From Comamonadaceae bacterium (GTDB lineage Bacteria; Pseudomonadota; Gammaproteobacteria; Burkholderiales; Burkholderiaceae_C), in contig CANJNC010000009.1 of NCBI GenBank assembly GCA_947475685.1, positions 1 through 64,000 on the forward strand: a stretch of DNA of 64,000 bases, in the 5' to 3' direction. The first letter of the stretch is position 1; every line of letters starts with the position of its first letter. A program made the position numbers and the translations under genes. The notes under the pieces are model-generated. The model was not told where the DNA came from. It worked only from the letters and a program-made list of their open reading frames with translations, and ran no database searches. Shown piece by piece: positions 9,685 to 43,901 of this stretch.

Positions 9685-10647
9685 TTGAAAATAGATATTC
9701 ACTCCCACGTGTTTGATCGTGGTTATTTTGATGCCATGTTGAGGGACATGGTGCTCCAAGTCGAAAAGACCCCATCAGGTCAAACCTTGTTGCGCAAAGA
9801 TGGCTACACCTACATGTGGTGGCGTGACGCTTTTTTTGATATCGACGAGCGACTGCGCGTCATGGATGCTCAAGGCATTGACATGCGGGCCTTGTCACTG
9901 TCCTCTCCCAGCGTTTACGACTGGAGCGGTGAGCGTCAAGTTGAAATGGCCAGGTACATGAACGATGTGACAGCCAAGATTGTTCAATCCCATCCAGACC
10001 GTTTTTTTGGATTGGGCACCTTGCCCTTGAGTGACATTGAGGCGTCTCTCATTGAACTTGATCGCTTGACGCTTGAGCTGGGGATGAAAGGCGTCATGAT
10101 GGGTTCGAACGTCGCGGGTATGCAATTGAATCACGAACGCTTTGAGCCCATTTGGGCAAAAATAGACGCTTTGAAACTTCCTGTTTTTGAGCATCCGATG
10201 TTTCCGCCCAATGTGGGGCAGGAGGAGTTTGAACTCCCCTTGAGGTTGGGCTTTATTTTTGATACGACGACTTGTGCAACTCGGTTGATCTATTCGGGCG
10301 TCTTTGAAAGATATCCAAATTTCCCCTACATCATGGCCCATACAGGTGGTGCGTTGTTGATGCTTTTAAAGCGTTTGGACAATGGGTACGAGTTGTTTCC
10401 AGATTGTCGCAAATACATCAACAAACCGCCCAGTGAATACGCCAAGCAGCTCTACTACGATACGGCTTCTTTTTATGCGCCCAGCATCATGATGGCCCAT
10501 GAAATTGTGGGCCCAGAGCGAATTCTTTTTGGCTCTGATGAGCCTTTGATTGGGGCAGACACAAGCCTCATTGAGGGCTTAAACATTCCACAGTCTCACA
10601 AGGCCAAGATTCTTGGTGGAAATGCAGCTCGTTTATTTGGTTTATAA
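9685..10647 (+). CDS. Amidohydrolase-2 family protein (ACMSD-like decarboxylase/hydrolase)
   Basis: 320 residues of the metal-dependent amidohydrolase-2 family, which includes aminocarboxymuconate-semialdehyde and hydroxybenzoate decarboxylases. Metal-site residues are present: His6 and His8 (DIHSH), His170 (FEHPMFP), His219 (AHTGG) and Asp285 (FGSDEP). A TTG start is needed because the HxH motif begins only five residues in and no ATG is available. It lies between a Bug receptor and a GMC oxidoreductase. Likely a cytoplasmic nonoxidative decarboxylase acting on a product made by the upstream enzymes, but hydrolase activity cannot be excluded. Confidence 0.85.
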   Translation: MKIDIHSHVFDRGYFDAMLRDMVLQVEKTPSGQTLLRKDGYTYMWWRDAFFDIDERLRVMDAQGIDMRALSLSSPSVYDWSGERQVEMARYMNDVTAKIVQSHPDRFFGLGTLPLSDIEASLIELDRLTLELGMKGVMMGSNVAGMQLNHERFEPIWAKIDALKLPVFEHPMFPPNVGQEEFELPLRLGFIFDTTTCATRLIYSGVFERYPNFPYIMAHTGGALLMLLKRLDNGYELFPDCRKYINKPPSEYAKQLYYDTASFYAPSIMMAHEIVGPERILFGSDEPLIGADTSLIEGLNIPQSHKAKILGGNAARLFGL

Positions 10648-14200: not shown

Positions 14201-15181
14201 ATGGACGGAAAAATTGGTTTAGAGGAGCATTTTGCAATCCCAGAAACTTTGCAAGACTCTGCGGGGTTTTTAGCCGAGTCCGTTTGGGGCGAGTTGTCAA
14301 AGCGTTTGATCGATGTTCAAGAATACCGTCTGAGAGAAATGGACAAGCACGGTATGCAAATGATGATCTTGTCTTTGAATGCGCCTGCCGTTCAAGCGAT
14401 ATGTGATAAAAAAAGAGCCAACGAGATTGCCATTCGGGCCAACGACTTTTTGGCCGAACAGGTTGCAAAAAGACCAGACCGCTTTCAAGGCTTTGCAGCC
14501 CTTCCCATGCAAGATCCGGACATGGCCATCACCGAGTTGACCCGCTGCATGAAGGTTCTGGGATTCAAAGGGGCATTGGTCAATGGATTTTCTCAAGTGG
14601 ACCATGCTGAGAACGTGGTTTACTACGATGCGCCTCAGTATGGGGAGTTTTGGAAGGTGTGTGAGCAGTTGGATGCGCCCTTTTATTTGCATCCAAGAAA
14701 CCCGATTCCTTCGTGGTCTCAAATTTATGCGGGCCACCCCTGGCTCATGGGGCCGACTTGGGCCTTTGGCCAAGAGACCGCAGTTCATGCGCTCAGACTG
14801 ATGGCCAGTGGAGTGTTTGACAAGCACCCGAAACTTAAAATTATTTTGGGTCACTTGGGTGAGGGCTTGCCTTACAGCATTTGGCGCGTTGACCACCGAA
14901 ATGGCTGGGTCAATGAAGAGAAGGCCTATCCCGCAAAGAGAAAGCTTGGAGACTATTTCCAAGAAAACTTTTATCTCACCACCTCTGGCAACTTTAGGAC
15001 ACAAAGTCTGATCGACGCGATGCTGGAGATCGGTTCAGACCGTATTTTATTTTCTACCGATTGGCCCTTTGAAAACGTTGACCATGCGGCCATTTGGTTT
15101 GATCAAACCAGCATCAGTGCGGCAGATCGTCAAAAAATTGGTCGCACCAATGCCATTGATTTGTTTAAATTGAAGCTTTAA
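14201..15181 (+). CDS. Gamma-resorcylate (2,6-dihydroxybenzoate) decarboxylase-type amidohydrolase
   Basis: 326 residues. It matches known gamma-resorcylate decarboxylases in length and in many conserved blocks (GLEEHFAIPETLQDSAGF, MMILSLNAPAVQAI, GALVNGFSQ, ILFSTDWPFEN). The metal and catalytic residues fall at the numbers I recall for the characterised enzyme: Glu8, His10, His164, His218 and Asp287. The reaction is reversible nonoxidative decarboxylation of a hydroxybenzoate to the phenol, 2,6-dihydroxybenzoate giving resorcinol. The preceding monooxygenase would act next. Salicylate or 2,3-dihydroxybenzoate as substrate is possible because the subfamily is promiscuous. Confidence 0.9.
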   Translation: MDGKIGLEEHFAIPETLQDSAGFLAESVWGELSKRLIDVQEYRLREMDKHGMQMMILSLNAPAVQAICDKKRANEIAIRANDFLAEQVAKRPDRFQGFAALPMQDPDMAITELTRCMKVLGFKGALVNGFSQVDHAENVVYYDAPQYGEFWKVCEQLDAPFYLHPRNPIPSWSQIYAGHPWLMGPTWAFGQETAVHALRLMASGVFDKHPKLKIILGHLGEGLPYSIWRVDHRNGWVNEEKAYPAKRKLGDYFQENFYLTTSGNFRTQSLIDAMLEIGSDRILFSTDWPFENVDHAAIWFDQTSISAADRQKIGRTNAIDLFKLKL

Positions 15182-24939: not shown

Positions 24940-26103
24940 ATGAACATCGATATAAATGAGTTTCTACGTGAAATGCGCCCGCATGTCAGGCGCTTTGTGA
25001 TGGAGCGAATGGAGCCCATATCTCGGGCGATGGACTCGGGTGGCGAATTGCCTCAAAGCGCGTTTGAAGAACTTCGCAATCAAGGCTATCTTGGTATGCG
25101 TTTGCCAACGTCTGAAGGGGGTGGTGGGTTCGATTTGTCGACCTATTGTTTGGTCATGGAGGAGCTTAGTCGTTCACACCGAATTTACACACTGATGTTA
25201 GATGCTTCTAGTGGATTGACACCCATTGCGATATCAAAATTTGGGACACCAGATCAAAAAAATAAATTCTTGCCGAAATTATCCTCCGGTGAATGGGTGG
25301 CCTCTTTTGCTTTGACAGAGCCTGAGGCAGGCTCAGATGCTGCTGCTATCAAAACGTCTGCGAAAAAAGACGATGCTGGCTGGGTTCTGAATGGTGTAAA
25401 GCATTACATCAGTTGGGCTCACCGTGCTCAAGTTATTCTTGTGATTGCGCTGACTGACCCTATCAAAAAAGCCAAAGGGGGCATCAGTGCTTTTTTGGTA
25501 GAAAAAAATACGCCAGGCATGAATATTGTTCGGGTTGATAAAACCATTGGTTCAGATGCCATTGAGTTGGCTGAAATTCATTTCACAGATTGCTTCATTG
25601 CGAACGATGCAATGATTGGCCAAGTTGGTGAAGGTTTTGGTATCGCAATGAGCTCTCTTACTGCGGGGAGAATGGGCGTGTCAGCCGCATGCTTGGGTGC
25701 TGCTGACCGATTGATTGAACTTGCAACCGAGCATGTGCAATCGCGAATTACATTTGGACAGGCGCTCTCGCAACGACAAGCCATCCAGTGGATGCTAGCT
25801 GATTCTGCCACCGAGTTGGCCGTTGCTCGGGCCTTGGCTTACGAGACTTTGCGACAAATAGATGCTGGGAGTGATCCTGGCATTGCCCCTAATATGGTCA
25901 AACTCTACTGCTCGGAGATGGTTGGCCGCGTTGCCGACCGGGCCGTTCAAATCTTTGGGGGCTCTGGTCTGATTCGAGGCTTCAATGTTGAGCGGTTTTA
26001 TAGAGACGTAAGGCATTACCGAATTGGAGAGGGATCATCAGAAATTCAAAGAATGCTAATTGCCAAGGACTTATTTAAATCAAATCACTCTTCTAAGAGA
26101 TGA
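24940..26103 (+). CDS. Acyl-CoA dehydrogenase
   Basis: 387 residues with the full FAD acyl-CoA dehydrogenase pattern: ALTEPEAGSDAA near residue 127, the GRMGVSAACLG helix, SRITFGQALSQRQAIQ, and the C-terminal FYRDVRHYRIGEGSSEIQR with the likely catalytic base Glu364. It would oxidise an acyl-CoA to the enoyl-CoA and pass electrons to ETF in the cytoplasm. Its 3' end runs directly into the Bug gene region. An acyl-CoA synthetase at the end of the same run could supply its substrate. Confidence 0.9.
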   Translation: MNIDINEFLREMRPHVRRFVMERMEPISRAMDSGGELPQSAFEELRNQGYLGMRLPTSEGGGGFDLSTYCLVMEELSRSHRIYTLMLDASSGLTPIAISKFGTPDQKNKFLPKLSSGEWVASFALTEPEAGSDAAAIKTSAKKDDAGWVLNGVKHYISWAHRAQVILVIALTDPIKKAKGGISAFLVEKNTPGMNIVRVDKTIGSDAIELAEIHFTDCFIANDAMIGQVGEGFGIAMSSLTAGRMGVSAACLGAADRLIELATEHVQSRITFGQALSQRQAIQWMLADSATELAVARALAYETLRQIDAGSDPGIAPNMVKLYCSEMVGRVADRAVQIFGGSGLIRGFNVERFYRDVRHYRIGEGSSEIQRMLIAKDLFKSNHSSKR

Positions 26104-26120
26104 CCAAAAAAGGGAAAAAA

Positions 26121-27110
26121 ATGAATCAACTTGTTTCAAGATATTTTTCAAAAATAATATTTATATTTACGGTGCTCGTTAGCGCTATTTGGGTCTCTTT
26201 TGCACATTCACAAGAGTCTTATCCAAATAGAGCTGTGATTTTGATCAATCCATGGGCGGCAGGAGGTCCCTCCGAGGCCATTATTCGACCTATTGCTGAG
26301 AAACTCACTCAGCTGTTAGGCCAGCCCTTTGTCATAGAGGCCAAACCTGGCGCCAATGGCACAATAGGTACCGCTATGGTGTCTCATGCCAAACCGGATG
26401 GATACACTCTTTTATTTGCCAATGCTGGGCCGATCACCATTAGTCCGTCTTTGCCCAATAAGCCAGCTTATGATGTCAGTCGAGACTTTGTTCCTATCAC
26501 TCAAATTGTTTCTGCGCCCACGTTGCTTGTTGTTCGTTCAGATTTTCCTGCAAAAAATTTGGCTGAATTTATTGACTATATAAAGAAAAATCCTGGCAAG
26601 GTGGCATACGGCTCAGTTGGGATTGGTAGCACAACACATTTGGCCGGAGCGACCCTGGCTGAGCGAGTTCGCACAGAAATGATACATATTCCGTACACTG
26701 GATCCTCTCAAATCAATACCGACTTGCTAGGTGGTCAGATTCAGACTGCTTTTGTCAATATAGCTGGCGTCATGGGCTTGGTGACTGAGGGTAAATTGCG
26801 ATCTTTGGCAGTGAGTACTCTAAGGCGAACGTCAGTCTTACCCAACATTCCTACCGTTGCTGAGCAAGTCCCCGAATTTGAAATGAATTCCTGGTATGGG
26901 CTCATGGCACCTGCCAATACACCACCAGCAATCACACAAAAACTAAATTCAACTCTGGTTCAAATTCTTAAAATGCCCGACATCGTCAATCGCTTGAGTG
27001 ACTATGGCTTGGTGATCGAGGGAACCTCCCCAGAGGCTTTTACAGCTAAAATTAAATTGGACTTGACCAATTATGCCAACTCGGTTCGTGCGGCTAAAAT
27101 CAAGGACTGA
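26121..27110 (+). CDS. Bug/TctC-family receptor
   Basis: 329 residues. The ATG at 26121 has AGGG upstream and opens a Sec signal (cleavage near FAHSQ-ESYP); an ATG at 26100 overlapping the preceding stop is the alternative. The ligand loop reads NPWAAGGPSEAIIRP, so the family Asp is replaced by Glu. The KPDGYTLLFAN element is intact. It is flanked by the acyl-CoA dehydrogenase and two hydrolase-fold proteins, suggesting uptake of an acid that is then activated to a CoA ester. Confidence 0.9.
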   Translation: MNQLVSRYFSKIIFIFTVLVSAIWVSFAHSQESYPNRAVILINPWAAGGPSEAIIRPIAEKLTQLLGQPFVIEAKPGANGTIGTAMVSHAKPDGYTLLFANAGPITISPSLPNKPAYDVSRDFVPITQIVSAPTLLVVRSDFPAKNLAEFIDYIKKNPGKVAYGSVGIGSTTHLAGATLAERVRTEMIHIPYTGSSQINTDLLGGQIQTAFVNIAGVMGLVTEGKLRSLAVSTLRRTSVLPNIPTVAEQVPEFEMNSWYGLMAPANTPPAITQKLNSTLVQILKMPDIVNRLSDYGLVIEGTSPEAFTAKIKLDLTNYANSVRAAKIKD

Positions 27111-27157
27111 TGCGCTGGCATTGCTTTAATTTAAGCTTGGTACATCATCTCTAGCCT

Positions 27158-28024
27158 ATGGCGACTGTTATGCGCGATCATCCAATTCTCAGAGGCTTTG
27201 CTCAAATAGAGGAAGGACAAGTGCACTTTCGTCATTGTGGTGCTCAGCATGGAAAAATTAAAAAACCCTTGGTGATGATTCACGCATCTCCAGGATCTGC
27301 CAAAACACTTGAGCCTTTGATGACTGCGCTGTCCAAGCACCGCTGGGTCATTGCACTTGACACGCTGGGCAATGGGGATTCATGTGCTCCAAAGGCACCC
27401 TTGGTTGACATGACTTATTTAGCGCATGCTCACCTGCGAGCTTTGAATGACATAGGAGTTGAGGAGTTTAGTCTTTATGGAACACACACTGGAGCAAATA
27501 TTGCTGGCGAAATATCCATTGCGGCACCAAAGCGTATTCATCGCTTGATTCTGGATGGGGTTTCCTTTTACTCGGATGAGCAACGTCGTGAGTTTTTACA
27601 GCACTATGCCCCTGATGTGGAGTTTGATCAAAATGGCTCTCAGTTTCAATTCATGTGGGGGTTTATAAGGGATGCTTATTTGTTTTGGCCATGGTACCAA
27701 AGGAGTGCCTCTCATTTGAGAAAGACTGGCCTACCGTCTGCCGAGATACTTCACGATAAAGCTGTTGAAGTTTTCAAAGCCGCTAGAACGTATCCCGCAA
27801 TATACCGTGCCGCTTTGGCTTATGACAAAGCCGCACGCCTTCCATTGATTCAATCCAATACTTTACTTTGCTGCGCTAAAAATGACATGCTCTTTGAATA
27901 TTTCCAAGAAGTTTCACAATTCATGCCGAATGCGCAAAAATGCGTGACTGCTGGAACTTCTAACCCTGACGATTTTAAATCTACGGTGGCTACTTTTGAA
28001 GACTTTCTTTCGCAACAATCTTAG
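27158..28024 (+). CDS. Alpha/beta-hydrolase-fold protein with atypical nucleophile elbow
   Basis: 288 residues with the alpha/beta-hydrolase pattern: HASPGSAKT (oxyanion loop after strand 3), DTLGNGDS, then the elbow YGTHTGANIA. The GxSxG serine position is occupied by His110 (GTHTG). I also do not find a clear catalytic His near the C-terminus. It may be inactive, use another mechanism, or act as a lyase or isomerase. It lies 47 bases after the Bug gene and 41 before an amidohydrolase-fold protein that also lacks metal ligands. Confidence 0.8.
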   Translation: MATVMRDHPILRGFAQIEEGQVHFRHCGAQHGKIKKPLVMIHASPGSAKTLEPLMTALSKHRWVIALDTLGNGDSCAPKAPLVDMTYLAHAHLRALNDIGVEEFSLYGTHTGANIAGEISIAAPKRIHRLILDGVSFYSDEQRREFLQHYAPDVEFDQNGSQFQFMWGFIRDAYLFWPWYQRSASHLRKTGLPSAEILHDKAVEVFKAARTYPAIYRAALAYDKAARLPLIQSNTLLCCAKNDMLFEYFQEVSQFMPNAQKCVTAGTSNPDDFKSTVATFEDFLSQQS

Positions 28025-28065
28025 TTAAGCCTTGTACTTTAAAATTTTCACATATTGGATCGAAA

Positions 28066-28971
28066 ATGAATCAACCAACCAACTCTTTAAAACATCTGGG
28101 TGTCATTGATGCCGTGGTTAATATTTGGACAGCTGAGAGCTTGGCCATTCGACCTAACCGCGATGCTTTCTTTGGCGATAAGATGGGAGTGAGTCAAGAG
28201 ATATTAAAGGGTATCACCATTGCTGAAATGGTCAACCGCATGGATCAAGCCGGTATAGAGAAGTCTTTTTTGATTGCAGCCAAAGTGGGACCCTTTCTTC
28301 ACCGATCCACGTATCACATTCCTTATGAAATGGTGGTACGGGCCATTGCAGAGTTTCCAGATCGTTTTTACGGATTGGCTGGTCTTGACCCGACCGAGGG
28401 CATGCAAGGAGTGAGGGGACTCGAGAGAGCGGTGCGAGACCATGGATTTATTGGCGCGCATTTTTACCCACATTGGTTTGAACTCGCGCCGGATCACGCC
28501 AAGTGGTACCCCTTCTACGCAAAATGCGTGGAACTCGACATACCTGTCCAACTGCAAGTGGGTCAGTCCATGATTTATGACCCAGCCCATCGATTGAAAA
28601 GCGTAGCTCGCCCAATCAGCTTAGATGGTGTAGCTTGCGACTTTCCAGAATTAAAATTAATTGGTATCCATGTGGGTATTCCCTGGGCGGATGAGATGAT
28701 TGCCATGGCCTGGAAACACCCCAACGTTTTTATTGGCTGTGATGCACACTCTCCCAAATACTGGCCAAATTCTTTTGTCAATTACATCAATACCTTTGGA
28801 CAGGACAAGGTCATTTTTGGTACAGATTTTCCTATTTTGGATTTTGAAAGAACCCTTAAACAAATCGATGATTTGCAATTGAGACCCATCCCAAAGCAAA
28901 AGTTACTTCGTGACAATGCGATCAGAATTTATAAACTAAATTTAGAAAAATTTACAGATCATGCCACTTGA
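28066..28971 (+). CDS. Amidohydrolase-2-fold protein lacking the HxH metal motif
   Basis: 301 residues clearly of the amidohydrolase-2/ACMSD fold (FPDRFYGLAGLDP, GFIGAHFYPHW, LIGIHVGIPW with His202, FGTDFPI with Asp254). However, the N-terminal DxHxH is replaced by DAVVNIW, and the usual His of the central strand is Gln in VQLQVGQ. Metal coordination like that of the decarboxylase at 14201 is therefore unlikely. The 3' end overlaps the acyl-CoA synthetase start by 11 bases, so the two are translationally coupled. Function unknown. Confidence 0.82.
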   Translation: MNQPTNSLKHLGVIDAVVNIWTAESLAIRPNRDAFFGDKMGVSQEILKGITIAEMVNRMDQAGIEKSFLIAAKVGPFLHRSTYHIPYEMVVRAIAEFPDRFYGLAGLDPTEGMQGVRGLERAVRDHGFIGAHFYPHWFELAPDHAKWYPFYAKCVELDIPVQLQVGQSMIYDPAHRLKSVARPISLDGVACDFPELKLIGIHVGIPWADEMIAMAWKHPNVFIGCDAHSPKYWPNSFVNYINTFGQDKVIFGTDFPILDFERTLKQIDDLQLRPIPKQKLLRDNAIRIYKLNLEKFTDHAT

Positions 28972-30454
28972 GTTTCAACTTGGTTCGAATATTTCCGATC
29001 AATTGAAGCGGCTAGCTCATCAACGGCCCACTAAAACTGCAATCATCCATGGAGCTGCTCGTATTAATTACGCCCAGCTTTATGAGAGGGTCATTGAAAA
29101 AGCAAAGGCTTTAATCGATTTGGGTATTCAAGAGGGCGACATTGTGGGTGTTGCACTTGAAGACTCAATCGATCATTTGGTGATGTTGTTTGCAGTTGCA
29201 AGGGCTGGTGCAATCATTTTACCGATGGATCACCGTTGGTCCATCACAGAAAAAGAAGCCCTTTTTCAGCACTTCAAGCCCAAATGTGTATTGGTCAATG
29301 AGCAAGATGATTGGTCGCCTCACAATGCCTGGCTAGTAAAGTCACTCACGGCTGAAGTCGACGTGAGCCCTCTAAGCGAATATGAGTTTCCGTTGGGTCG
29401 ACACGGACTCACCCTATCTTTGTCCTCCGGTACAACTGGCAGACCCAAGGGACCCTTGGTATCGCACCAGCAGTTTATCAGTCGCTTTCTGACCCATTGG
29501 ATCGATTTAGGCTTTGGTTCAAGAGAGACTTACATCAATGCCACACCACTTTATTTTGGAGGCGGTAGAGCTTTTAGTTTGTCCATTCTTTTCGTGGGCG
29601 GGACATTGGTGTTATTTCCGCCTCCTTACACTCCACATGAACTCGCCAGTGAAATTGAGCGAACCAAGTCCACGTTATTATTTTTGGTACCGACTTTGCT
29701 TAGACGTATTTTGAGCAAGATCCATGAAGAGAAGTCCAATGACACAGATTTGAAGTATTTTCAAAAGCTCAATACGCTTATTTCATCGGGCTCTGCTTTG
29801 ACCTCGGAAGAAAGGCAAGCCATAAGTCAAAACATATGCGCTCATTTTATCGAATACTACAGCTCAACGGAAGGTGGAGGCGTTTCGGTATTGACACCCA
29901 AGGATCAGATGCATTTTCCTGATTCTGTGGGTAGGCCGATTTTTGGGGTGGATGTTCAAATTGTCAGCGAAGAACATCAACCATTATCTGCAAATACTGT
30001 AGGACGTATTCGATACAAAGGAATGGCTGTTTCAAGTGGCTTTTACAACGATCCTGAATCGAGCCTTGAATCCTTTCATGAAGGATGGTTTTATCCTGGC
30101 GATCTAGGCCTTCTCAATGAAGAGGGATATCTCTTTTTAAAGGGTCGATTCAAAGATATGATTATTCGAGGGGGTATCAATATTTATCCACTGGAAATAG
30201 AAAACACTTTGATGAACAACCATTGTGTTTCTGAGGCCGCCGTGATTTCTACGCCTTCAAAAGAATTTGGAGAGGAAATTGTAGCTTTCGTCAGTTTAAA
30301 AGCACCCATATCATCTTCTGATTTGATTGATTTTTGCAAAACTCACTTGGCACCTTATAAAGTTCCTAAGCTTATACAATTCATGGATCAGCTTCCTAAA
30401 AACTCTGGTGGAAAAGTTGTCAAATCCCAGTTGTCAAAAATGCTGAACAATTGA
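28961..30454 (+). CDS. AMP-forming acyl-CoA synthetase (ANL superfamily)
   Basis: 497 residues. Motif A3 is SSGTTGRPKG near residue 152, A5 is YSSTEGGG, A7/A8 is the block GDLGLLNEEGY and GRFKDMIIRGG followed by NIYPLEIE, and the C-terminal catalytic Lys is in NSGGKVVKSQL. These catalyse ATP-dependent activation of a carboxylic acid to its CoA thioester. Given the operon, the substrate is probably the acid captured by the Bug receptor, which the acyl-CoA dehydrogenase would then oxidise. Benzoate-, coumarate- or medium-chain-type specificity cannot be separated by eye. Confidence 0.9.
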   Translation: MPLEFQLGSNISDQLKRLAHQRPTKTAIIHGAARINYAQLYERVIEKAKALIDLGIQEGDIVGVALEDSIDHLVMLFAVARAGAIILPMDHRWSITEKEALFQHFKPKCVLVNEQDDWSPHNAWLVKSLTAEVDVSPLSEYEFPLGRHGLTLSLSSGTTGRPKGPLVSHQQFISRFLTHWIDLGFGSRETYINATPLYFGGGRAFSLSILFVGGTLVLFPPPYTPHELASEIERTKSTLLFLVPTLLRRILSKIHEEKSNDTDLKYFQKLNTLISSGSALTSEERQAISQNICAHFIEYYSSTEGGGVSVLTPKDQMHFPDSVGRPIFGVDVQIVSEEHQPLSANTVGRIRYKGMAVSSGFYNDPESSLESFHEGWFYPGDLGLLNEEGYLFLKGRFKDMIIRGGINIYPLEIENTLMNNHCVSEAAVISTPSKEFGEEIVAFVSLKAPISSSDLIDFCKTHLAPYKVPKLIQFMDQLPKNSGGKVVKSQLSKMLNN

Positions 30455-32964: not shown

Positions 32965-33834
32965 ATGGCGATATCTTCCGAACTCATCAAATCTGTGACT
33001 GCTGAACTCTATGAGCGTTCGCTTAGAAAAATCCCACTTGATGCGATGGATGCGCTCGTTGGTGCCGCTCAAGTTGAATCCAATGAAACTGCTCGTCACA
33101 CCTTGCGCATCATGATCAAAAGCGCTGAGGAAGCAGAAAAAACAGGACAGTTTGTTTGTTCCGATTCAGGGGTGCCCGTATATTTCATTCGTGTGGGGAC
33201 CCAAGTCCAATTCAGCGGTCATGTTCGTGAAGCCATTACACAAGGGTTTGATCAATTGGTTTCAACCATTCAACCCCCATTGTTACCCCACATTACTCAC
33301 CCTCTGACCTTGGAGAGAGGGTACAAGGGGGCTGGTATGCCACTTGTTACTTTTGACATGGTGGATGGTTCAGACTGCATGGACATCACCTGTTCTCCAA
33401 AAGCACTGGGCTCTGGACGCTGGGCTGCGTTGGAGGTTTTCAGTTTCCCGGACTTGCGCACAATTGAAAAATATGTTCTTGACGTGGTCGCTCGTGCAGG
33501 GTCTCAACCGTGCCCGCCTGTTGTCGTTGGCGTTGGGATTGGCGGAAGCTTTGACTACGCGGCCAAATTGGCCAAGGAGGCTACTTTGCGCCCAATTGGG
33601 GAGCATCACACTGAGGGCATGGTAGCTGACATGGAAAAGCGACTCTTGGCTGGCATCAACATGATGGGTTTTGGGCCAATGGGAACAGGAGGAGACTTTA
33701 CCGCCTCAGCTGTGCACGTAAACTATGCAGCGGGTCATGGTTTTACGCCTGTCGCCGTTGCTTTTAATTGTTGGATCAATCGTCGAACCCGTGCTCATAT
33801 TTTCAACGATGGTCGAGTTGAATTTTTGGAGTAA
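32965..33834 (+). CDS. Fe-S hydro-lyase alpha subunit (tartrate dehydratase/class I fumarase type), copy 1
   Basis: 289 residues, length and layout of TtdA. Three cysteines, Cys65 (VCSDSG), Cys183 (SQPCPP) and Cys269 (FNCW), have the spacing of the 4Fe-4S ligands of TtdA. The substrate motif VGVGIGGSFDYAAKLAKE is intact. The complex with the next protein would dehydrate a hydroxydiacid or hydrate an enedioate; class I members act on fumarate, mesaconate or tartrate. A closely similar second copy lies at 34854. Confidence 0.9.
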   Translation: MAISSELIKSVTAELYERSLRKIPLDAMDALVGAAQVESNETARHTLRIMIKSAEEAEKTGQFVCSDSGVPVYFIRVGTQVQFSGHVREAITQGFDQLVSTIQPPLLPHITHPLTLERGYKGAGMPLVTFDMVDGSDCMDITCSPKALGSGRWAALEVFSFPDLRTIEKYVLDVVARAGSQPCPPVVVGVGIGGSFDYAAKLAKEATLRPIGEHHTEGMVADMEKRLLAGINMMGFGPMGTGGDFTASAVHVNYAAGHGFTPVAVAFNCWINRRTRAHIFNDGRVEFLE

Positions 33835-33838
33835 ATTC

Positions 33839-34495
33839 TTGACCATTCAAACACATCGGATGAAGTTTCCGCTATCAGAAAATGACTCGAGGACATTGAG
33901 AGCAGGCGACCAAGTTGTCATCGATGGTGAAATCATCGTGACAGCGGGACTTCCGACTCACCAGCGCCTTATTCGCTGCCTTGATGGACTAGAGCCATTG
34001 CCTTTTAATTTACTTGGTCAGACTCTTTTTCATCTTGGAAGCTACTGCCAAGCGAAGACTCGTCCTGAAGGAATAGAGCAACTTGATGTTGTCTATATCA
34101 ATCCAACCACCAGCACGCGTTTTAACGATGTCATGCCTAGACTTATTGGTGAATTACAACTTCACGCTGTAGGCGGAAAAGGCGGACTTGATGCAAGATC
34201 TGTTGAGGCCATGAAAAAAACAGGCTGTGTGTACTTATCTTTTCTGGGAGGAGGTGCAACTCTTCACACTCAATCTATCCAAGAGGTTCTTGAAGTTGGA
34301 TGGAGCGATATGCTAATGCACTATAGGTTGATGCGACTGCGAGTGATGGGTTTAGGGCCAGTGACCGTTGCTATGGATGCGCATGGAAATAGCATATACG
34401 CTGACACTCAAGTAAACGCTCAAACACGAATGAATCAAATCATGGCCTTTATGGATGTTGCTCGTCAAGAAGCTGCAACCAAGAATAAGTGCTAG
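33839..34495 (+). CDS. Fe-S hydro-lyase beta subunit (tartrate dehydratase/class I fumarase type), copy 1
   Basis: 218 residues from a TTG at 33839. This start has GGAG seven bases upstream, lies just after the alpha stop at 33834, and gives an N-terminus that lines up with the second copy (MTIQTHRMKF against MSTVQHINLN). The ATG at 33860 has no ribosome site. The beta-subunit marks are YINPTTSTRFNDVMPRLIG, GGKGGLDARSV and CVYLSFLGGG. It pairs with the preceding alpha subunit. Confidence 0.88.
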   Translation: MTIQTHRMKFPLSENDSRTLRAGDQVVIDGEIIVTAGLPTHQRLIRCLDGLEPLPFNLLGQTLFHLGSYCQAKTRPEGIEQLDVVYINPTTSTRFNDVMPRLIGELQLHAVGGKGGLDARSVEAMKKTGCVYLSFLGGGATLHTQSIQEVLEVGWSDMLMHYRLMRLRVMGLGPVTVAMDAHGNSIYADTQVNAQTRMNQIMAFMDVARQEAATKNKC

Positions 34496-34853: not shown

Positions 34854-35726
34854 ATGGCGATTGAGAGTGCACTGATCAAACAGGTCACAGCTGAGTTGTA
34901 TGAAAAATCTCTTAAAAAGATTCCAGAAGACACGCACTCATTTTTGAACCGTGCGATCAATAAAGAATCAAATTTAACAGCTAAGAAAACCCTGAAGATC
35001 ATGGTGCAAAGCGCTGATTTAGCGAAAAGTACAGATCAATTAATCTGTTCGGATGTGGGTATTCCAACATATATCTTTAAGATAGGTTCTAAGGTTCAAT
35101 TTAATGGACCGATAAGGCAGGCCATTCAAGACGGATTCAAGGAGTTGACTGAAAAAATCAATCCTCCGATTTTAAAGATGGTCACCAATCCCTTGACTCA
35201 CGAGAGAAGTTTTGAGGGTAAAGATATACCAATTGTCAGCTACGATGTAATAGATGATGCTGATTATGTTGAAATTATTTGTTCTCCGAAAGCCATGGGC
35301 ACTGGACGATGGGAGGCGATTGAGGCTTTTGTTTATCCAACCCACGAAGACATCGAAAGATTTGTGATTGATGTTGTGATGAAGGCGGGCTCACAACCTT
35401 GTTTACCGATTGTTGTAGGCGTCGGAATTGGGGGAACTTTTGACTACGCTGCAAAATTGGCTAAAGAAAGCATGTTAAGGCCACACGGCATTATCAGTTC
35501 CAATCCGATATTGGCAGATATGGAGGTGCGATTACTTAAGGCCATCAATCAAATGGGCTTTGGACCTATGGGTACAGGGGGTGAAACTTCTGCAATGTCA
35601 GTGAATATTGATTTTGCCTTTAGTCACGGTTTTGTCCCTGTTGCCGTTTGTTTCAACTGTTGGATCAATAGAAGAACCTCAGCAAAAATATACAATGACG
35701 GTCGAGTTGAGAATTTAGATTGGTAA
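34854..35726 (+). CDS. Fe-S hydro-lyase alpha subunit, copy 2
   Basis: 290 residues, aligned without gaps over most of its length with the copy at 32965. The presumed cluster ligands Cys65, Cys183 and Cys269 are at the same positions, with an extra Cys266. The block GVGIGGTFDYAAKLAKE is the same except for one residue. The coding DNA uses far more A/T-ending codons than copy 1. Substrate may differ from copy 1, since the polar segment after residue 210 (HGIISSNP against IGEHHTEG) is divergent. Confidence 0.9.
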   Translation: MAIESALIKQVTAELYEKSLKKIPEDTHSFLNRAINKESNLTAKKTLKIMVQSADLAKSTDQLICSDVGIPTYIFKIGSKVQFNGPIRQAIQDGFKELTEKINPPILKMVTNPLTHERSFEGKDIPIVSYDVIDDADYVEIICSPKAMGTGRWEAIEAFVYPTHEDIERFVIDVVMKAGSQPCLPIVVGVGIGGTFDYAAKLAKESMLRPHGIISSNPILADMEVRLLKAINQMGFGPMGTGGETSAMSVNIDFAFSHGFVPVAVCFNCWINRRTSAKIYNDGRVENLDW

Positions 35727-35729
35727 TGA

Positions 35730-36374
35730 ATGAGTACTGTTCAGCATATTAATTTAAACGCAAACTCCTCAGATATTAAAAATTTGAGGATTGGTGACCT
35801 TGTCACCATCTCGGGTTCCATTCATGTAACGATAGGAATTCCTGTGCACAAACATTTAATTGAATGTATAAAAGAAAATGATTTAAGTATTTGCGAAGAA
35901 ATGAAGGGTGGGTGTTTTTTCCATTTAAGTACGTATGTTGAGGAAACATCCGCGGGCCATAAACCTCTTTATATCAATCCCAGTACAAGCACTCGGTATA
36001 ACGAATGGATGCCCGATATAATTGATGGATTTAATTTAAAAATGGTTGGTGGAAAGGGTGGTTTAGATCAAAGAAGTGTTGATCAATTAACTAAAAATGG
36101 CTGTGTCTACCTCTCATTTCTGGGAGGAGGGAGTCCTTTTTTATCCAAAGGGTTAAAGCGCGTGATTAATTCTCGTTGGAATAATTACATTTCTCAGTTT
36201 CGGTTGTTGACGCTTGAGGTTGATCATTTCGGCCCTGCAACAGTGGCTATCGACTCGACTGGAAATAGTATTTACGGAAACTTAATATCAAGCGCTGAGG
36301 GAAAACTTGATTCAATCATGAATGAATTAAATATTCAGAGAAATAAGTTCATTGATCAATTTAACTTGTCTTAG
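35730..36374 (+). CDS. Fe-S hydro-lyase beta subunit, copy 2
   Basis: 214 residues. Motifs YINPSTSTRYNEWMPDII, GGKGGLDQRSVDQL and CVYLSFLGGGSP correspond to copy 1. Its ATG begins 4 bases after the alpha stop. The Bug gene follows within 10 bases. The alpha-beta-Bug order in an AT-rich segment suggests the complex acts on the ligand of that receptor. Confidence 0.9.
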   Translation: MSTVQHINLNANSSDIKNLRIGDLVTISGSIHVTIGIPVHKHLIECIKENDLSICEEMKGGCFFHLSTYVEETSAGHKPLYINPSTSTRYNEWMPDIIDGFNLKMVGGKGGLDQRSVDQLTKNGCVYLSFLGGGSPFLSKGLKRVINSRWNNYISQFRLLTLEVDHFGPATVAIDSTGNSIYGNLISSAEGKLDSIMNELNIQRNKFIDQFNLS

Positions 36375-42345: not shown

Positions 42346-43901
42346 GCGCCGTTAAAGTATTTGTGCCCCGCGATAGTGCAGCGCTTGCCTTGGGTGCTGA
42401 TGAGGTTGCGCAAGCGCTTACGCAAGAAGCTCTAACTCGCGCTATGACTGTTGAATTGGTCCGCAACGGATCAAGGGGACTGTTTTGGCTTGAACCTATG
42501 GTGGAGGTTCAAACGCCCCAGGGAAGAGTGGCTTATGGCCCTGTTCAAGCTGAAGACATCAAATCCCTCCTTGATGGCGGGATGCTAGAAGGTCAAAAGC
42601 ATGCCTTGTATCTCGGCTTAACAGATCAAATCCCCTATTTGGCCAAACAAGAACGTTTGACGTTTGCTCGTATGGGGGTGATCGATCCTCTGTCTTTGAC
42701 TGATTATGAAGCCCATGGGGGGTGGGCTGGTCTTTTGCGCGCTTTGAAGATGGACGAAGCTGGCATTGTTCAAGAAGTGAGCGACTCAGGTTTGCGTGGA
42801 CGCGGTGGTGCTGCATTTCCAGCGGGTATCAAATGGCGCACAGTGTTAAACGCGACAGGCCAACAAAAGTACATTGTCTGCAATGCGGATGAAGGGGATT
42901 CAGGTACCTTCTCAGACCGCATGACGATGGAGGGCGACCCCTTCATGTTAATCGAAGGCATGATTATCGCCGGTCTTGCTGTTGGCGCAACTCAAGGCTA
43001 CCTGTACATTCGCTCTGAGTATCCTCACGCCATTGAGGTGATGAACGAGGCGATCAAACGGGCTTTGAACGCTGGGTACTTAGGCCAAAACATATGCAAA
43101 AGTGCAAAGACTTTCTCGCTTGAAGTGAGAAAAGCCGCAGGATCCTATGTTTGTGGCGAAGAAACAGCGCTCCTAGAAAGCATTGAGGGCAAGCGCGGTG
43201 TTGTTCGTGCGAAACCTCCTTTGCCTGCAGTTGCGGGTTTGTTTGGACTGCCAACCGTCATCAACAACGTCATTACTCTCGCCTCCGTGCCATTGATCTT
43301 GGCCAAGGGCGCTTCCTTTTACCGAGATTTTGGTGTGGGCCGTTCTCAAGGCACGTTGCCCTTTCAGATTGCTGGCAATATCAAGCATGGTGGGTTGGTT
43401 GAAAAGGCATTTGGACTCACATTGCGTGAGCTTTTGTTTGATTTTGGGGGCGGTAGCCGAAGCGGTCGTCCTATCAAGGCGGTTCAAGTCGGTGGGCCGC
43501 TTGGTGCCTATGTGCCAGAGTCGCAGTGGGACTTGCCCCTTGACTACGAGGCATATGCCGCTGTTGGCGCTGTGGTGGGGCATGGTGGTATTGTTGTGCA
43601 CGATGAAACAGCCAACATGGCCAAGTTGGCGCGTTACGCCATGGAGTTCTGTGCAATTGAGAGCTGCGGAAAATGTACCCCTTGTCGCATTGGTTCTACC
43701 CGAGGTGTGGAAGTCATTGACCGAATCATCAATGACAACAACAGGGAGCAACAAGTCCATTTGCTGCGTGACCTGTGCAACACCATGCTCAGCGGCAGCC
43801 TTTGCGCAATGGGTGGCATGACGCCATATCCAGTTATATCTGCTTTGAATCACTATCCAAAAGACTTCGGCATCGAAGTTCATGAAACTGAAAAAGTTTA
43901 A
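42342..43901 (+). CDS. fdsB: NAD-dependent formate dehydrogenase beta subunit
   Basis: 519 residues. The N-terminal part is a fused thioredoxin-like domain, then the NuoF-type FMN/NAD site GRGGAAFPAGIKWR near residue 148 and NADEGDSGTFSDR. The 4Fe-4S motif is ESCGKCTPCRIGSTRG with a further Cys about 40 residues later. This subunit reduces NAD+. ATGA overlap with fdsG. Confidence 0.95.
   Translation: MSAVKVFVPRDSAALALGADEVAQALTQEALTRAMTVELVRNGSRGLFWLEPMVEVQTPQGRVAYGPVQAEDIKSLLDGGMLEGQKHALYLGLTDQIPYLAKQERLTFARMGVIDPLSLTDYEAHGGWAGLLRALKMDEAGIVQEVSDSGLRGRGGAAFPAGIKWRTVLNATGQQKYIVCNADEGDSGTFSDRMTMEGDPFMLIEGMIIAGLAVGATQGYLYIRSEYPHAIEVMNEAIKRALNAGYLGQNICKSAKTFSLEVRKAAGSYVCGEETALLESIEGKRGVVRAKPPLPAVAGLFGLPTVINNVITLASVPLILAKGASFYRDFGVGRSQGTLPFQIAGNIKHGGLVEKAFGLTLRELLFDFGGGSRSGRPIKAVQVGGPLGAYVPESQWDLPLDYEAYAAVGAVVGHGGIVVHDETANMAKLARYAMEFCAIESCGKCTPCRIGSTRGVEVIDRIINDNNREQQVHLLRDLCNTMLSGSLCAMGGMTPYPVISALNHYPKDFGIEVHETEKV

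What the first reader, a model, noticed from the sequence alone, without database searches (positions are those of the whole stretch)
27158..28971. Adjacent hydrolase-fold proteins both lacking standard catalytic residues
The alpha/beta-hydrolase has GTHTG instead of GxSxG (His110 at the serine position) and no evident C-terminal His. The next protein has the amidohydrolase-2 fold but DAVVN instead of DxHxH and Gln instead of a metal His. Two altered enzymes side by side in an operon with Bug, acyl-CoA dehydrogenase and acyl-CoA synthetase suggest a coupled, unusual reaction rather than decay, since both reading frames are full length.
Basis: partly seen in the sequence, partly recalled or inferred. 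Interest (0 to 1): 0.75.

Follow-up and report, generated by a model that had tools for sequence, protein, structure and literature searches.

The report
Paired hydrolase-fold enzymes with rewired active sites
Two neighbouring bacterial enzymes have lost the catalytic residues normally used by their families, yet relatives in other bacteria keep the same replacements, so they look like working enzymes with re-wired active sites rather than broken ones.

Summary
ABH (27158-28024) has His110 at the serine-nucleophile position and no His after Asp243. AMH (28066-28971) lacks three of the four usual metal ligands (V17, N19, Q164) but keeps H202 and D254. These are clade signatures, not decay: H110 occurs in 9 of 9 close ABHs read and V17/N19 in 16 of 16 rows of the AMH clade, and dN/dS is 0.02-0.14. 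Seven of seven other loci where the surroundings could be read carry the same five-gene set (Bug, ACS, ACAD, ABH, AMH) in two gene orders; a more distant pair is near-adjacent in another class. The mechanism is inferred: ABH would use an elbow His110-Asp243 dyad as general base, and AMH would work metal-free or with a relocated metal, both acting on CoA-activated acids. His at the elbow belongs to a wider GxHTG family (30 of 45 domains compared). I found no description of it in the searches made. Substrate and reaction are unknown.

The parts
27158..28024 (+). ABH: 288-aa alpha/beta-hydrolase-fold protein with His at the nucleophile elbow
   Evidence: Pfam Abhydrolase_1 36.3 bits, cut-off 25.8; relatives
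27485..27487 (+). codon of His110 (CAC) at the nucleophile position, G-T-H-T-G
   Evidence: aligned with Ser110 of 1azw; His in 9 of 9 close ABHs read, the window included
27884..27886 (+). codon of Asp243, position of the usual catalytic acid after strand beta7
   Evidence: aligned with the GRDDMLI stretch of 8v16; Asp in 28 of 28 H110-type domains that reach it
28066..28971 (+). AMH: 301-aa Amidohydro_2 protein with altered metal site
   Evidence: Pfam Amidohydro_2 140.2 bits, cut-off 26.4
28108..28122 (+). D15-A-V17-V-N19 in place of DxHxH
   Evidence: V17 and N19 in 16 of 16 rows of the clade; His and His in 12 of 12 canonical relatives
28555..28557 (+). Gln164 in place of the strand-beta5 metal His
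   Evidence: Gln in 15 of 16 rows of the clade, His in the paralogue L041
28825..28827 (+). Asp254, retained strand-beta8 Asp
   Evidence: 16 of 16 in the clade
24940..26103 (+). ACAD: acyl-CoA dehydrogenase
   Evidence: Pfam Acyl-CoA_dh domains; 70% identical to the ACAD of the Variovorax SRS16 operon
26100..27110 (+). Bug/TctC solute-binding protein
   Evidence: Pfam TctC; a Bug gene is in 7 of 7 other five-gene sets read
28961..30454 (+). ACS: AMP-binding acyl-CoA synthetase, overlaps AMH by 11 bases
   Evidence: Pfam AMP-binding; commonest partner of AMH

Best explanation
Shown: ABH and AMH are selected proteins of a five-gene set (Bug solute-binding protein, acyl-CoA synthetase, acyl-CoA dehydrogenase, ABH, AMH), and their unusual residues are fixed clade signatures. 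Inferred: Bug helps take up a carboxylic acid, ACS makes its CoA ester and ACAD introduces a double bond. AMH then does a metal-free (or relocated-metal) hydration, hydrolysis or decarboxylation using the retained D254/H202 pair in a rebuilt pocket (N19, H132, H136, Q164). ABH does a further deprotonation-driven cleavage or elimination, using His110 at the elbow, polarised by Asp243, as general base, with the remaining oxyanion hole holding the negative charge. No acyl-serine intermediate would form.
For: The five-gene set is kept in 7 of 7 other loci where it can be read, in two gene orders. A tandem-domain ABH with FYGTHTGA, an ACS homologue and an AMH (50% identical) stand next to each other in G712, outside the class. 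H110 and T111 are invariant and D243 nearly so in 16 chosen members at 25-56% identity. Of 45 PW-type domains 30 have H110, and the 28 of these that reach position 243 all have Asp; of the 10 without H110 that reach it, 7 have Asp (Fisher p = 0.014, not corrected for relatedness). dN/dS is 0.07-0.14 for ABH and 0.018-0.069 for AMH. The 7 AMHs in the tree with a close ABH beside them form one supported group (99/94). N19, H132, Y134 and H136 are invariant in 16 of 16 AMH-clade rows where 12 canonical relatives have H, K, H and mostly T. Precedent: in HOD-type alpha/beta-hydrolase dioxygenases the nucleophile is not essential and a His-Asp dyad is the general base (PMC10548524 passages; PMC3961685 start of abstract).
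Against: No structure of useful confidence: AlphaFold2 mean pLDDT was 57 and 58, so the H110-D243 distance is unmeasured. Asp243 does not depend strictly on H110: 6 of 6 evaluable degenerate halves of tandem proteins, and the stand-alone L110, keep Asp243 without it. Some stand-alone members lack H110 altogether (7 of 45 domains). Several close relatives have His residues after position 243, though in no shared column; in L047 one lies near the usual place. AMH often lives without ABH. The order of reactions and the substrate are guesses.
Confidence: 0.4

Rival explanations
1. Pseudoenzymes: both proteins keep the fold but only bind a ligand, or stabilise ACS/ACAD.
For: Most canonical catalytic residues are gone in both. 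Some ABH-family members lack even H110. Tandem members carry one half with a degenerate elbow.
Against: Pocket residues are among the most conserved: H110/T111 invariant in 16 chosen members, D243 in 28 of 28 H110-type domains that reach it, AMH D254/H202/N19 in 16 of 16. The tandem proteins examined keep one half with a His elbow.
Confidence: 0.22
2. Relocated metal site: AMH, and perhaps ABH, bind a metal through new ligands (AMH H132, H136, H202, D254; ABH H42, H110, H199, D243).
For: H132 and H136 are invariant in the AMH clade, where 12 canonical relatives have Lys and mostly Thr. H42, H110, H199 and D243 are the same in 8 of 8 close ABHs compared.
Against: In the wider ABH family H42 and H199 vary (Q/M and S/A/E/Q/N/R) among domains that keep H110. 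A haloarchaeal AMH relative with N19/Q164 has Leu at 132 (L050).
Confidence: 0.2
3. ABH is a cofactor-free oxygenase of the HOD/QDO kind, or another non-hydrolytic alpha/beta-hydrolase, acting on a (hetero)aromatic intermediate.
For: HOD-type enzymes do not need the nucleophile and use a His-Asp dyad (PMC10548524 passages). ABH relatives sit with isochorismatase and polysaccharide-deacetylase family genes, which could fit ring catabolism.
Against: In HOD the His is that of the normal triad, whose usual place (from general knowledge, the loop after beta8) has no His here. The window operon has no ring-activating gene inside it.
Confidence: 0.08
4. Decay, sequencing error or chance.
For: The genome is a draft of 146 contigs.
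Against: Same residues in other records, synonymous codon variation and low dN/dS; full-length frames.
Confidence: 0.02

Closest known systems
Canonical alpha/beta-hydrolases (3-oxoadipate enol-lactonase PcaD, RutD, HsaD; Pfam Abhydrolase_1)
   Same: Fold, nucleophile-elbow glycines, acid Asp after beta7
   Different: His replaces Ser at the elbow, and there is no His in the C-terminal place; NCBIfam models of these enzymes match only far below their cut-offs
HOD/QDO cofactor-free dioxygenases
   Same: Alpha/beta-hydrolase fold working without an essential nucleophile; a His-Asp dyad is proposed here as general base
   Different: In HOD the dyad is the His-Asp part of the normal triad and the elbow is Ser or Ala (PMC10548524 passages)
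Amidohydro_2 decarboxylases and hydratases (gamma-resorcylate decarboxylase 3s4t, 4-oxalomesaconate hydratase LigJ 2gwg)
   Same: Barrel fold and sequence family; beta6 His and beta8 Asp kept
   Different: Both His of DxHxH and the beta5 His are replaced
BB4693 (3irs/3k4w), uncharacterised solved Amidohydro_2 protein
   Same: Best solved relative of AMH by sequence; it too lacks usual ligands (Met at the beta5 place, Ala at beta8 in the alignment)
   Different: It has lost the beta8 Asp that AMH keeps; rows with such states (RRMA, RRMS) lie outside the AMH clade in the tree
LigI, an amidohydrolase-superfamily lactonase said to work without metal (recalled; no paper read)
   Same: Precedent for metal-independent catalysis in the superfamily
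   Different: As recalled it keeps HxH; sequence not compared here

Membership tests
Alpha/beta-hydrolase superfamily (Abhydrolase_1) | Profile match above curated cut-off | tested here: met
   36.3 against 25.8 bits
Alpha/beta-hydrolase superfamily (Abhydrolase_1) | Ser, Asp or Cys at the nucleophile elbow | tested here: not met
   His110, aligned with Ser110 of 1azw
Alpha/beta-hydrolase superfamily (Abhydrolase_1) | Acid after beta7 | tested here: met
   Asp243
Alpha/beta-hydrolase superfamily (Abhydrolase_1) | Catalytic His after beta8 | tested here: not met
   Window protein has no His after residue 243; relatives have 0 to 3, in no shared column
Amidohydro_2 / amidohydrolase superfamily | Profile match above curated cut-off | tested here: met
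   140.2 against 26.4 bits
Amidohydro_2 / amidohydrolase superfamily | HxH metal pair on beta1 | tested here: not met
   V17, N19
Amidohydro_2 / amidohydrolase superfamily | His on beta5 | tested here: not met
   Gln164
Amidohydro_2 / amidohydrolase superfamily | His on beta6 and Asp on beta8 | tested here: met
   H202, D254
Amidohydro_2 / amidohydrolase superfamily | Bound divalent metal | not testable with these tools
   Needs purified protein
HOD-type cofactor-free dioxygenase | His-Asp dyad with the His of the normal triad position | tested here: not met
   No His after residue 243 in the window protein
HOD-type cofactor-free dioxygenase | Oxygen-dependent ring cleavage | not testable with these tools
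   Needs assay

The most novel reading that the evidence does not exclude
GxHTG proteins are a distinct catalytic architecture of the alpha/beta-hydrolase fold: the catalytic His sits in the nucleophile elbow and pairs directly with the beta7 Asp, with no Ser and no beta8-loop His. Fused tandem members pair one active and one degenerate half. In Burkholderiales this enzyme acts with a metal-free amidohydrolase in an undescribed CoA-dependent acid catabolic pathway.
Probability: 0.3. Interest if true: 0.75.

Novelty: new variant of a known kind. Interest (0 to 1): 0.55.

Why it matters
The alpha/beta-hydrolase triad is one of the best-studied catalytic designs. A 2024 classification (PMC11878206, section 2.7 read) lists Ser, Asp, Cys, or a missing Ser with a D/E-H dyad, and in that section does not mention His at the elbow. 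A conserved family with His there and none in the usual place would extend what the fold can do. The AMH side shows metal-ligand sets in Amidohydro_2 switching clade by clade and then staying fixed, which gives a natural series for asking how a metalloenzyme becomes metal-free. Both make automatic annotation as 'hydrolase' doubtful.

Tried and rejected
Decay or error: rejected by synonymous codon variation and low dN/dS. Pairs with saturated dS were not evaluable: 4 of 7 for ABH, 2 of 6 for AMH, 2 of 6 for ACS.

Three-ligand metal site in ABH as a family trait: unlikely, because H42 and H199 vary among domains that keep H110.

Naming the substrate from neighbours: failed. Neighbours differ between loci (MmgE/PrpD, isochorismatase and others). 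In NCBIfam no listed model reached its cut-off for ABH (15 listed), ACAD (22 listed) or ACS (the best 25 of 106 listed), and AMH matched none.

Structure: both AlphaFold2 models were weak. Foldseek only confirmed the two folds, at TM about 0.4 and 0.5, and no distances were taken from the models.

Promoters and terminators: counts within one standard deviation of shuffles.

Literature: in their listings, searches showed no paper on a GxHxG alpha/beta-hydrolase, on this operon or on a DxVxN amidohydrolase. Several listings were cut to the best 10-20 papers. Only listings were seen, except PMC11878206 (passages; section 2.7), PMC7034887 (passages) and PMC10548524 (passages); of PMC3961685 only the start of the abstract. 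Most subscription papers are not in the library.

The statement that close relatives have no C-terminal His was corrected to 'no shared column'. The degenerate halves that keep Asp243 without H110 were added to the count, which weakens the dyad argument, so the confidence of the best explanation was lowered from 0.42 to 0.40.

Full report
Anatomy. The window region 24940-30454 holds, on the + strand, ACAD, Bug, ABH, AMH and ACS (Pfam). ACAD and Bug overlap by 4 bases, AMH and ACS by 11; the gaps Bug-ABH and ABH-AMH are 47 and 41 bases, as in an operon. The window lies in a draft genome of 3.77 Mb in 146 contigs. The nearest named relatives of this operon are Burkholderiales, apart from one contig titled Akkermansia that is probably mis-binned (L037).

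ABH. The protein is an alpha/beta-hydrolase by profile (36.3 bits, cut-off 25.8). His110 aligns with Ser110 of the solved proline iminopeptidase 1azw. Asp243 aligns with the acid region of Est1 (8v16). The window protein has no His beyond residue 243. The usual triad Ser-Asp-His is therefore His-Asp-none.

Close relatives. In L036-L040, Variovorax SRS16 (L046), Variovorax PBL-E5 (L114) and Comamonas endophytica (L047) the elbow reads G[T/A/S]HTGA[N/S], with Asp243: with the window 9 of 9. After Asp243 these proteins have 0 to 3 His, in no shared column; one in L047 lies near the usual place. The set Bug, AMH, ACS, ACAD surrounds ABH in 7 of 7 other loci where it can be read: L037-L040 and L047 in the order Bug-AMH-ACS-ACAD-ABH, SRS16 and PBL-E5 in the window's order ACAD-Bug-ABH-AMH-ACS. 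SRS16 and PBL-E5 are near-copies (99% for ABH). L036 is cut by its contig end. The two orders use different ACADs: the window ACAD is 70% identical to that of SRS16 but about 32% to the other type. AMH has DxVxN and Gln164 in all 8 of these operons, the window's included.

Selection. By counting (Nei-Gojobori) dN/dS is 0.137, 0.070 and 0.079 for ABH (3 of 7 pairs evaluable), 0.018, 0.020, 0.027 and 0.069 for AMH (4 of 6), and 0.092, 0.077, 0.101 and 0.127 for ACS (4 of 6); the other pairs are saturated. The codons of H110 (8 loci) and of N19 and Q164 (7 loci) vary only synonymously.

The wider GxHTG family. Plasmid records of Novosphingobium, Sphingomonas JE1, Sphingobium, Azospirillum, Antarctobacter and Rhizorhabdus carry relatives at 32-43% identity. 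Across the loci fetched, 51 distinct domains of at least 150 residues matched the family profile, of which 45 have the lid motif PW. Of these 45, 30 have His110, and the 28 of them that reach position 243 all have Asp there. The 15 without His110 are 8 halves of tandem two-domain proteins and 7 stand-alone proteins (four with Leu from one genus, three with Ala). Position 243 is aligned in 4 of the 7 stand-alone ones, of which 1 keeps Asp (Fisher p = 0.0008 against the 28), and in 6 of the 8 halves, all of which keep Asp; with the halves included 7 of 10 keep it (p = 0.014). Neither test corrects for relatedness, so the link of H110 and D243 is suggestive only. A looser group with GHHTG at the elbow (L073, L098, L099, L100) has, in the three whose ends were read (L073, L098, L099), GGMVP where I read the canonical His to lie. 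The host genome has 25 other alpha/beta-hydrolase matches to the family profile, all far weaker (68 bits or less against 378).

AMH. Profile Amidohydro_2 at 140 bits. A tree of 52 relatives (states) puts the window in a 16-row clade (support 100/97) in which V17 and N19 are invariant and Q164 occurs in 15; the exception, with His164, is the host's own paralogue (L041). Twelve canonical rows (HxH, H, D) form a separate clade, and other clades have other fixed swaps (RRMA/RRMS, HYDD, WQQN, haloarchaeal WNQD). The beta6 His is kept in 50 of 52 rows. Compared with the 12 canonical rows the AMH clade also has H132 for Lys, Y134 for His and H136 for mostly Thr, all invariant: the pocket has been rebuilt rather than merely stripped. 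The 7 AMHs of the tree with a close ABH beside them, the window's included, are one supported group (99/94). The window also holds a canonical relative at 14201-15181 with LEEH and LHPR, whose best solved match is gamma-resorcylate decarboxylase (3s4t, E = 1.8e-160), so the host encodes both kinds.

Coupling. In the 16 AMH loci an ACS homologue lies within about 3.3 kb in 15 (not L042), and a His-elbow ABH of this family in 8: the seven above and G712, where AMH (50%), an ACS homologue (27%) and a tandem ABH with FYGTHTGA follow each other. G712's second AMH has an Ala-elbow member (L110) about 6 kb away, not counted. Some stretches are short (L044 ends soon after ACS), so absence there is not proof. 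In an even draw of 398 genomes of the phylum, AMH-clade genes occurred in 2 (G000, G712) and PW-type ABHs in 3 (G000, G486, G712). Leaving the host out, the overlap of 1 genome in 397 has Fisher p = 0.005. Only 6 candidates per genome were scored, so misses are possible. In the order draws AMH-clade genes occurred in 5 of 300 genomes and ABH at E <= 1e-30 in 6 of 399. Protein distances of ABH correlate with those of AMH (r 0.87) and ACS (r 0.95) over 7 loci, as co-inheritance predicts.

Mechanism. Everything from here is inference. The retained oxyanion-hole region, His110 and Asp243 suggest a His-Asp general-base dyad moved into the elbow. HOD-type dioxygenases show that the fold can work with a His-Asp dyad and a dispensable nucleophile (PMC10548524, passages; PMC3961685, start of abstract). 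For AMH, D254 and H202 are the likely acid/base pair; a relocated metal bound by H132/H136 is not excluded. The order uptake, CoA activation, dehydrogenation, AMH, ABH follows from the families, not from data. The predicted structures are too weak to test geometry.

Verdict. Observation confirmed; not decay; a new variant of two known enzyme kinds.

Noticed in passing
L002 (G000:C72 about 9944-10288) and L004 (G000:C26 about 42757-43134), host genome: Two other alpha/beta-hydrolases of the host have elbow G-L-A-M-G (Ala for Ser) but keep a C-terminal AAHFPP His, a different kind of altered site, recalling Ala-elbow HOD-type enzymes.
   Followed up: no
window 14201-15181: Canonical gamma-resorcylate-decarboxylase-like Amidohydro_2 protein (LEEH, LHPR, GHLG, STDW; best solved match 3s4t), beside a glyoxalase-fold protein, a P450 and an ACAD-like protein.
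   Followed up: partly
window 32965-34495 and 34854-36374: Two fumarase/tartrate-dehydratase-type gene pairs in tandem (Pfam Fumerase at 32965 and 34854, Fumerase_C at 33725 and 35730).
   Followed up: no
L023-L035, L050, L077, L080-L083: Amidohydro_2 relatives show several fixed metal-ligand swaps (RRMA/RRMS, HYDD, WQQN, WNQD), most of them one side of a branch in the tree.
   Followed up: partly
L051, L052, L054, L061, L064-L066, L072, L074-L076, L087, L088: Fused tandem GxHTG proteins in which one half keeps the His elbow and the other is degenerate, as if a homodimer had been fused.
   Followed up: partly
L037: Record titled Akkermansia muciniphila MAG holds an operon whose ACAD is 97% identical to that of a Comamonadaceae contig (L040); probably a mis-binned contig.
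   Followed up: no
L051/L067, L071, L047: Isochorismatase plus two polysaccharide-deacetylase-family genes recur near GxHTG proteins, with LeuCD and HMG-CoA-lyase-like genes in sphingomonads: an unassigned catabolic cluster.
   Followed up: no
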